From contig JACPGE010000035.1 in assembly GCA_016182605.1 (NCBI GenBank), positions 1-57,525 of the forward strand: a stretch of DNA of 57,525 nt. The letters run 5' to 3'. Below are positions 43,008-46,180 of the stretch, piece after piece. The stretch comes from Candidatus Hydrogenedentota bacterium (GTDB taxonomy: Bacteria; Hydrogenedentota; Hydrogenedentia; Hydrogenedentales; JAEUWI01). Position 1 is the stretch's first letter. Every line of letters starts with the position of its first letter. The translations under genes and the position numbers were made by a program. The notes under the pieces are model-generated. The model ran no database searches. It was not told the DNA's origin and was given only the letters and a program-made list of their open reading frames with translations.

Positions 43008-43036
43008 TTGACAGAATGGGCGGGGGCTCCTATGAT
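43008..43036 (+). promoter_or_regulatory. Near-consensus sigma-70 promoter
   Basis: TTGACA (43008-43013), exactly 17 bases, TATGAT (43031-43036). The transcript would start near 43043, about 24 bases before the Fe-S subunit ATG at 43067, which has AAGGAGG at five to six bases. This supports active expression of the two oxidoreductase genes. Confidence 0.8.
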
Positions 43037-43066
43037 GAATGGTAACGCGTTCAGCAAGGAGGTTCC

Positions 43067-43549
43067 ATGGAAGCCCAGTTTGAACTGCTGGTCAATGGCC
43101 ATACCCATGCGGTGACGACCGATGGGGAATGATCGTTGCTCGACGTGCTGCGGGAGGATTTGAACCTCACCGGAGCGAAGTATGGCTGCGGAGAAGGGGC
43201 CTGCCGCGCGTGCACGGTGCTGGTGGACAAGCGGCCCGTCGTTTCGTGCACGATGCCTGTGAGCCGCGCAGCGGGCAAGGCGATCACCACAATTGAGGGC
43301 CTGGCTTCCGGCGATACGCTGCATCCCGTGCAGGCGGCCTTTATCGCGGAGGACGCCATGCAATGCGGCTTCTGCGTCCCGGGCATGATTCTCACGGCGG
43401 CGGCGCTGCTGGAGAAGGAGCCCGATCCCACGGACGAGGCCATCGTCACGTTCATGAATGGTAACCTCTGCCGGTGTTGCGGCTATCCGAAGCTGCTGAC
43501 GGCGATCAAGCATGCTGCGAAAGCGATGTGCGGGGAGGCGACGGCATGA
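43067..43549 (+). CDS. (2Fe-2S) subunit of a molybdenum hydroxylase (IorA/CoxS type), in-frame TGA at codon 22
   Basis: The full gene runs 160 codons from ATG 43067 and is collinear with the small subunit of isoquinoline 1-oxidoreductase and aldehyde or CO dehydrogenases. Seen: FELLVNGHTHAVTTDGE, then TGA (43130-43132), then SLLDVLREDLNLTGAKYG, the plant-type ferredoxin Cys set CGEGACRACTVLVD with a fourth Cys in VVSC, and the second cluster CGFCVPGM ... CRCCGY. In relatives the TGA position is an ordinary residue, so a CGA-to-TGA change is simplest. A TTG at 43136 gives a 137-residue protein without the first beta strand. Its stop overlaps the large-subunit ATG (ATGA). It may be a pseudogene, sequence error, or partly functional through readthrough or reinitiation. 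Confidence 0.85.
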
Positions 43550-45681
43550 GCAGAATACTTTTCAACGATCCCCTCCCGGAACCGGAACGCTACGAGCTTG
43601 CCGAGAAGCCCCGCTACCGCTTTGAACTCGATCGCCGCACCTTCCTGCAGCTTACCGGCGCGGGTCTGCTGATAACCGTGACCGGCGGCGCTGCATTTGC
43701 GCAGCGGGGCGCTTCCGGTGCGCGCACCATCGCGGCGCGCATCCACATCGGCGAGGATGGAATAGTCACGGTGATGACGAGCAAGGTGGAGGTGGGGCAG
43801 GGCGCGCGCACGGAATTGGCGCAGGCGGCCGCGGAAGAATTGCGTGTGCCGGTGGATCGCGTGCGGATGATCATGGCGGATACGGATGTCGTGCCGGATG
43901 ACGGCGGCACCTATGGCAGCCTGACCACGCCGCGCACGGTGCCCCTGGTGCGTGAAGCGGCCGCGGCGGCGCGGGAAGCACTGGTGCAACTGGCGGCCTC
44001 CGTGTGGCAGGCGCCGGCGGGAGAAGTGATCGTGGCGGATGCCGTCATTGCGCATCCGCCCACCAGCAGGCGCATAACTTTTGGTGAACTCGCGAAGCAA
44101 CCCGCGCTGTTGCGGCTGCTGGAGGCGCCCGTGGAGGGGGCGGCGCTGACCGGGGAAGCCGCATGGACGACGCTGGGCGCCTGGGTGAAGAAGACCACGG
44201 GCCGCGACATCGTGACGGGCGCGCAGAAGTATCCTTCCGACCTCGTGCGGCCCGGCATGCGTTATGGCGCGGTGTTGCGTCCGCCTGCCGCAGGGGCGCG
44301 GCTGAAGCACGTGGATCTCGCGTTGCTGAAGGAGTGGAATGATGTGGTGACAGTGCAGGACGGTGACTTCGTCGCGTGCGCGGCTCCCACTTCGTTTCGC
44401 GCTGCGCAGGCCATTGCAGCATTGCAAAAGACCGCGGTGTGGGAGGGCGCGACGGCGGGAACGACTGCGACGCTTTTCGCGGGCCTGAAGCAAAATGCGA
44501 AGACCGAGGGCCGGGGCCGGTCGGGGCCGCGGGTCGATGAGGAAGGCGAAGTGGATGCGGCCTTTTCCGCGCAGGCGGTGACGCGTGCAGTCTACAACGT
44601 TTCTTATATTCAGCACGTGCCCATGGAGCCCCGCGCGGCGGTGGCGGAATGGGTGGAGGGCAAGCTCACCGTATGGACGGGCACCCAGCGTCCACATGGG
44701 GTGCTCGAAGAATTGCAGGAAGCCTTTGGGCTCGGCGCGGGCATGGTGCGGGTCATTGTGCCCGACTCGGGCGGGGGATTTGGCGGGAAACACACCGGCG
44801 ATGCCGCGCTGGAGGCGGCGCGCATCGCGAAGGCGGCGCAGGCCCCCGTGTCGTTGCGGTGGACGCGCGAAGAAGAATTCCAGTGGGCCTATTGCCGCCC
44901 TGCGGGCGTGATTGAAATGGCCGCGGTGTTGAAAGAGGGCGCGCTGCACGCCTGGGAGCACAGCAACATCAATTCCGGCGCGGCGGCGATAGAGATGCCG
45001 TACGCGGCGCCGCATTGGCGCACGCGCTTCCTGCCGAGTGAGTCACCCCTGCGCGAGGGTTCCTACCGTGCGCTTGCGGGTGCGGCGAATGTCTTCGCGC
45101 GCGAATCGTTTATCGATGAGCTGGCACTGGAAGCGGGCGCCGATCCATTGGCGTTCCGCTTGAAACATGTGCAGGACGATCGGTTGCGCGCCGTGCTGGA
45201 GGCGGCCGCGTCCAAGTTTGACTGGATGGCGGCGCGTCAGGGCGGTGGCAGCGGTACGGGCGTGGGGATCGCGTGTGGCATGTTGAAGGGCTCGTACGTG
45301 GCCACGGCAGTGCGCGTGCGCGTGGACAATGCGATCCACGTGGAGCACGTGTGCCAGGCCTTCGAATGCGGGGCCATTCTGAATCCGGGCAACCTGCGCT
45401 CTCAGGTGGAGGGCTGCATCATCATGGGGCTTGGTGGCGCGCTGTTGGAAGCGGTCGAATTCGAGGAAGGCCGTGTGCTCAATGCGTCGCTGAAGCAATA
45501 CGCCGTGCCCCGCTTCGAACATGTGCCGCCCCTCGACCTGGTTTTGCTGGATCGGCGCGATTTGCCTTCTGCGGGCGCCGGAGAAACCCCCATCGTGGGC
45601 ATCGCCCCGGCCATCGCAAATGCGGTGTGTCACGCGACTGGCAGGCGTCTGCGGCAGTTGCCCTTGCGATTGGAAGGATAA
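43546..45681 (+). CDS. Molybdopterin-binding large subunit, isoquinoline 1-oxidoreductase (IorB) type
   Basis: 711 residues from ATG 43546, overlapping the Fe-S subunit stop. The N-terminus has a short leader then LDRRTFLQLTGAGLLITVTGGAAFA, a Tat-type RR signal, so the complex is probably exported folded. Motifs of the IorB/xanthine-dehydrogenase superfamily: ARIHIGEDGIVTVMTSKVEVGQG, DDGGTYGSLTTPRTVP, VPMEPRAAVAEW, GTQRPHGVLEELQEAFGL, PDSGGGFGGKHTGDAALEAA, GSYRALAGAANVFARESFIDELA, and GAGETPIVGIAPAIANAV with the conserved active-site Glu in GET. Family members hydroxylate N-heterocycles or aldehydes using Mo-cofactor, the Fe-S subunit and an external acceptor. No FAD subunit is present, as usual for IorAB. 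The substrate is unknown. Confidence 0.92.
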   Translation: MSRILFNDPLPEPERYELAEKPRYRFELDRRTFLQLTGAGLLITVTGGAAFAQRGASGARTIAARIHIGEDGIVTVMTSKVEVGQGARTELAQAAAEELRVPVDRVRMIMADTDVVPDDGGTYGSLTTPRTVPLVREAAAAAREALVQLAASVWQAPAGEVIVADAVIAHPPTSRRITFGELAKQPALLRLLEAPVEGAALTGEAAWTTLGAWVKKTTGRDIVTGAQKYPSDLVRPGMRYGAVLRPPAAGARLKHVDLALLKEWNDVVTVQDGDFVACAAPTSFRAAQAIAALQKTAVWEGATAGTTATLFAGLKQNAKTEGRGRSGPRVDEEGEVDAAFSAQAVTRAVYNVSYIQHVPMEPRAAVAEWVEGKLTVWTGTQRPHGVLEELQEAFGLGAGMVRVIVPDSGGGFGGKHTGDAALEAARIAKAAQAPVSLRWTREEEFQWAYCRPAGVIEMAAVLKEGALHAWEHSNINSGAAAIEMPYAAPHWRTRFLPSESPLREGSYRALAGAANVFARESFIDELALEAGADPLAFRLKHVQDDRLRAVLEAAASKFDWMAARQGGGSGTGVGIACGMLKGSYVATAVRVRVDNAIHVEHVCQAFECGAILNPGNLRSQVEGCIIMGLGGALLEAVEFEEGRVLNASLKQYAVPRFEHVPPLDLVLLDRRDLPSAGAGETPIVGIAPAIANAVCHATGRRLRQLPLRLEG

Positions 45682-45766: not shown

Positions 45767-46180
45767 ATGGAATCGAAGGTATCACGGAGAGACGCGTTGG
45801 GTACGGTGGCATTGGGCACGGCACTCGCCGCGGGCATGGGTTTCATGCGCCCTGCAATGGCAGAGTTTGCGGACACGATGATCACGCAGACGGCGTCCTT
45901 CGGACTGAACCCCGAGAAGAAGGAAGAGGCGAAAGAGGCGATTCTGCGCCTGGTGAAGGCAGTTGAAGAAAAGGAGCCCGGCGTGCTCGCGTACATACCC
46001 CACTTCACCGAGAAGGATCAGGTCTTCTTCTTCGAAGTCTACAAGGACGCCGAGACCCTTCAGGCCCACGGCAAACAGCCGCACATGGCCGAGATTAAGG
46101 GTGCCTTCGCCTCCGGCGCGCTCAAGATGCCGCTGGAAGTGGTGAAGATGAGCCGCATCGCGGGCTTCTACCGCGTGTAG
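45767..46180 (+). CDS. Exported antibiotic-biosynthesis-monooxygenase (ABM)-type protein
   Basis: 137 residues; GAAGGGA lies about nine bases before ATG. The N-terminus VSRRDALGTVALGTALAAGMGF is a Tat-type signal. The mature part is one ABM/YgiN-like dimeric alpha-beta barrel domain (FGLNPEKKEEAKEAILRLVKAVEEKEPGVLAYIPH; FFFEVYKDAETLQAHGKQPHMAEIKGAF). Such domains oxidise quinols or polyketides or bind small molecules. It starts 85 bases after the Mo-hydroxylase large subunit on the same strand and shares Tat export, suggesting a joint periplasmic pathway. Confidence 0.88.
   Translation: MESKVSRRDALGTVALGTALAAGMGFMRPAMAEFADTMITQTASFGLNPEKKEEAKEAILRLVKAVEEKEPGVLAYIPHFTEKDQVFFFEVYKDAETLQAHGKQPHMAEIKGAFASGALKMPLEVVKMSRIAGFYRV

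What the first reader, a model, noticed from the sequence alone, without database searches (positions are those of the whole stretch)
43067..43549. In-frame TGA at codon 22 of an otherwise intact Fe-S subunit gene
A near-consensus promoter, a strong ribosome binding site and all eight Fe-S cysteines are intact, and the gene is translationally coupled to its large subunit. Only TGA 43130-43132 interrupts it. It could be a fresh mutation (CGA to TGA), a sequencing or assembly error, readthrough, or start-site shift to TTG 43136. Loss of the first strand would be severe for a ferredoxin-like domain.
Basis: partly seen in the sequence, partly recalled or inferred. Interest (0 to 1): 0.6.

Follow-up and report, generated by a model that had tools for sequence, protein, structure and literature searches.

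The report
Nonsense codon in an oxidoreductase gene
One bacterium's iron-sulfur subunit gene is cut short by a single stop codon where related bacteria carry an arginine codon; it looks like an ordinary recent mutation or an assembly error, not a new way of reading the genetic code.

Summary
At 43067-43549 the small [2Fe-2S] subunit gene of a xanthine-oxidase-family molybdoenzyme is intact except for TGA at 43130-43132, codon 22. In-frame coding signal runs through both sides of the TGA. All 6 close orthologs examined have arginine (CGN) there, and none of the 79 more distant genes that could be read at that codon has a stop there. Sequence, fold and neighbourhood are those of a known family. 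Recoding is not supported: TGA is the commonest stop in the part of the genome examined (297 of 572 called genes), RF2 is present, none of the 42 detected tRNA genes reads UGA, SelA is absent, no match passes the SelB cut-off, and the only tRNA-Sec match above cut-off is a tRNA-Leu. The most likely account is a single nonsense substitution of an arginine codon, either a recent real mutation or a wrong consensus base. These two cannot be separated without reads. A restart at TTG 43136 is possible but would lack the beta1-beta2 hairpin of the ferredoxin domain. Low interest.

The parts
43008..43036 (+). sigma-70-like promoter TTGACA-17-TATGAT
   Evidence: consensus match only
43056..43062 (+). 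ribosome binding site AAGGAGG
   Evidence: read from the sequence
43067..43549 (+). small [2Fe-2S] subunit gene of a xanthine-oxidase-family molybdoenzyme, interrupted at codon 22
43130..43132 (+). in-frame TGA; CGN (Arg) in 6 of 6 close orthologs
43136..43138 (+). TTG, possible restart 3 bases after the stop, with GGGGA at 43124-43128 upstream
   Evidence: sequence; use not shown
43546..45681 (+). large molybdopterin-binding subunit, 711 aa, uninterrupted, ATGA overlap with the small-subunit gene, RRTFLQLTGAGLL Tat-like N-terminus

Best explanation
This is the small Fe-S subunit gene of a two-subunit, probably exported, molybdenum hydroxylase. In the assembled sequence it carries one nonsense substitution at an arginine codon, as a recent real mutation in the sequenced population or as a wrong consensus base. 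If real, ribosomes end at codon 22, no complete Fe-S subunit is made, and the coupled large subunit is probably made less (inferred). The TGA itself acts as an ordinary stop.
For: Arg stands at this codon in 6 of 6 close orthologs (58-67% identical): CGC four times, CGA once, CGT once. The 7th row taken, a more distant one, has Gln CAA. Of 79 distant loci readable there, 0 have a stop at this codon and Arg is commonest, 18 of 79; one of the 80 (L079) aligned too far in to be read. Coding signal runs through the TGA. The large subunit is open, and pairwise identities of the rest of the small subunit are like those among the orthologs. The genome shows no UGA-decoding tRNA and no Sec machinery and uses TGA as a stop. 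An independent TGA interrupts one other member, L075, four codons further on, so such lesions occur in this family's metagenome records.
Against: No reads were seen, so whether the base is real is unknown. No congener is held, so the age of the change is unknown. A downstream hairpin folds better than most shuffles in one of three views (z -2.42). The promoter and ribosome site are intact, so no other decay is visible.
Confidence: 0.9

Rival explanations
1. Assembly or base-calling error, or a minority variant taken as consensus: the gene is whole in the organism. (This is one of the two sub-cases of the best explanation, so its score overlaps with that one.)
For: The genome is a 130-contig draft, the rest of the gene is intact, and the lesion is one base step from an Arg codon.
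Against: A coding-signal scan of 851194 bases (572 called genes) found 22 candidate junctions, one of them this one. Of 10 of the others searched in Pfam, none showed a domain split by a stop, so such lesions do not look common here; the scan is insensitive.
Confidence: 0.35
2. Restart at TTG 43136 gives a shortened subunit of 137 residues that still functions.
For: TTG lies 3 bases after the stop with GGGGA 7 bases upstream; all eight cysteines lie downstream.
Against: The product would lack strands 2-9 and 12-19 of the predicted fold. 6 of 6 close orthologs have an ATG about 20 codons earlier in an open frame, so an internal start is not a trait of the family.
Confidence: 0.07
3. UGA is read through or recoded (suppressor, Trp, or selenocysteine).
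For: A hairpin starts just after the TGA, z -2.42 with 5 of 200 shuffles as good.
Against: 0 of 42 tRNA genes read UGA; SelA has no match; SelB matches stay below cut-off; the tRNA-Sec match is tRNA-Leu (TAA). The hairpin is not kept in 6 orthologs, z -0.45 to +1.13, and its z falls to -0.10 in a longer view. TGA is the commonest stop.
Confidence: 0.03

Closest known systems
Small [2Fe-2S] subunits of the xanthine oxidase family (4-hydroxybenzoyl-CoA reductase gamma 1rm6, nicotinate dehydrogenase 3hrd, aldehyde oxidase small subunit 5y6q, CO dehydrogenase CutS 1ffu)
   Same: Fer2 + Fer2_2 domains, eight cysteines, same fold over the whole length when the stop is read through (TM 0.90-0.93)
   Different: Interrupted at codon 22 by TGA; substrate unknown
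Ordinary nonsense mutations / single-stop pseudogenes
   Same: One stop in an otherwise intact frame, sense codon in relatives
   Different: No other decay seen, so recent if real

Membership tests
Xanthine-oxidase-family small Fe-S subunit | Fer2 and Fer2_2 domains | tested here: met
   Part after the stop: PF01799 1.2e-29, PF00111 4e-07, Fer2 matched only from profile position 19
Xanthine-oxidase-family small Fe-S subunit | Eight cluster cysteines | tested here: met
   Invariant in the 9-row alignment
Xanthine-oxidase-family small Fe-S subunit | Partner molybdopterin subunit next door | tested here: met
   MoCoBD_2 and MoCoBD_1
Xanthine-oxidase-family small Fe-S subunit | Uninterrupted reading frame | tested here: not met
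   TGA at codon 22
Selenoprotein / recoded UGA | SelA, SelB and tRNA-Sec in the genome | tested here: not met
   genome listed as 97.86% complete
Selenoprotein / recoded UGA | UGA conserved at the position in relatives | tested here: not met
   0 of 6 close and 0 of 79 distant loci
Pseudogene by nonsense mutation | Sense codon in orthologs, one base step away | tested here: met
   CGN in 6 of 6, CGA in one
Pseudogene by nonsense mutation | Stop present in the reads | not testable with these tools
   No reads held

The most novel reading that the evidence does not exclude
The stop is real and kept, and the cell still makes an Fe-S subunit, either by leaky readthrough or by restart at TTG 43136 without the first beta hairpin, which would tune the amount of the enzyme.
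Probability: 0.05. Interest if true: 0.45.

Novelty: already known. Interest (0 to 1): 0.1.

Why it matters
Mainly as a caution: a single TGA in a draft genome can look like recoding, and comparing the codon in relatives with the tRNA and Sec gene content settles most of the question. If real, this lineage has recently lost one molybdenum hydroxylase.

Tried and rejected
Selenocysteine: rejected. Code change: rejected. Downstream hairpin as a recoding signal: best of three views, not kept in six orthologs. Relaxed constraint as a sign of old decay: no sign; the window's branch for the small subunit (0.246) is not longer than that of its neighbour in the tree (0.311), seven sequences, weak support. 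Genome scan for other single-stop genes: 851194 of 6757612 bases, 22 candidate junctions, one of them the window's own; 10 tested in Pfam (5 clearly two separate genes, 5 uninformative, 0 split domains), 6 set aside because a start with a ribosome site follows, 5 with short downstream frames not tested. An earlier stricter cut gave 3 candidates and missed the window's own. A first reading of codons forgot to turn the minus-strand loci and was redone (then). Two paper searches gave nothing used: one listed no papers, the other eight, of which only the listing was seen.

Full report
What is there. The frame 43067-43549 reads 21 residues, TGA, 138 residues and a terminal TGA. Coding signal in this frame is strong before the TGA (0.43 over 21 codons) and after it (0.33 over 20), and absent in the two shifted frames of the upstream stretch, so the upstream 21 codons are part of the gene.

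What the gene is. The part after the stop matches Fer2_2 and Fer2 and 37 distinct solved sequences at E <= 0.001, led by small subunits of aldehyde oxidase, nicotinate dehydrogenase, 4-hydroxybenzoyl-CoA reductase and CO dehydrogenase. It passes no NCBIfam equivalog cut-off, so the substrate is open. The next gene encodes the molybdopterin subunit; its N-terminus looks like a Tat signal (read by eye), and its matches to family models are out of order (residues 62-183 match positions 463-586 of NF007426), which recalls the isoquinoline 1-oxidoreductase type (recalled, not tested).

Relatives. Of 100 genomes searched as relatives, 30 have a match; the window's own genome is among the 100 and the 30. 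Seven relatives' loci were taken with more flank; six have the same partner gene at 53-60% identity over about 700 residues, and the seventh, L044, only at 39-44% in two pieces. Those six close orthologs all have Arg at this codon (CGC 4, CGA 1, CGT 1); L044 has Gln. In 79 the codon could be read: no stop, Arg in 18. One of them, L075, has a TGA of its own at another codon.

Recoding tests. RF2 is present above cut-off. TGA ends 297 of 572 genes called in 851194 bases (my own simple caller). Rfam found 42 tRNA genes; ARAGORN on all of these places shows tRNA-Trp with CCA and no UCA anticodon. The set lacks tRNA-Ile (GAT) and tRNA-Ala (TGC), so a few tRNA genes are missing from the assembly or the search. 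SelA gave no match, SelB no match above cut-off, and the tRNA-Sec model's best match is tRNA-Leu. The hairpin after the TGA (z -2.42) is not shared by six orthologs.

Consequence. The fold of the read-through protein (pLDDT 87.1, pTM 0.85) matches 1rm6 chain C at TM 0.93. Residue 22 lies in the loop between strand 12-19 and helix 24-31. A restart at TTG 43136 would give residues 24-160, without the first two strands. Shown: the stop, the family, the Arg in relatives, the lack of detected decoding machinery. Inferred: loss of the subunit and lower yield of the coupled large subunit. A second small-subunit gene of a different type (44% identical) lies elsewhere in the genome, so some related activity may remain.

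Weighing. A single nonsense substitution in the assembled sequence that acts as a plain stop explains everything seen (0.9). Of the whole, I put a real mutation at about 0.55 and an error or minority base at about 0.35; the rest goes to readings where a product is still made. The finding is real as sequence and ordinary as biology.

Noticed in passing
L075 4007-4009: Another member of this family (Xanthobacteraceae MAG, Baikal-deep-G39) has its own in-frame TGA four codons further on, at a place where many relatives have Trp.
   Followed up: partly
43546-45681: The large subunit matches xanthine dehydrogenase models in permuted order: its N-terminal part matches late model positions.
   Followed up: no
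45767-46180: A small ABM-domain (antibiotic biosynthesis monooxygenase-like) protein follows the pair; no relative of it was found in the 7 relatives' stretches fetched, some of which end soon after the large subunit.
   Followed up: partly
L193 4389-4877: Complete PvuII-like restriction endonuclease gene in the same genome (PF09225, 7.4e-63).
   Followed up: no
G099, G098, G085 matches: Five further matches to the small subunit contain one stop inside the matched stretch; whether these are gene ends or lesions was not checked.
   Followed up: no
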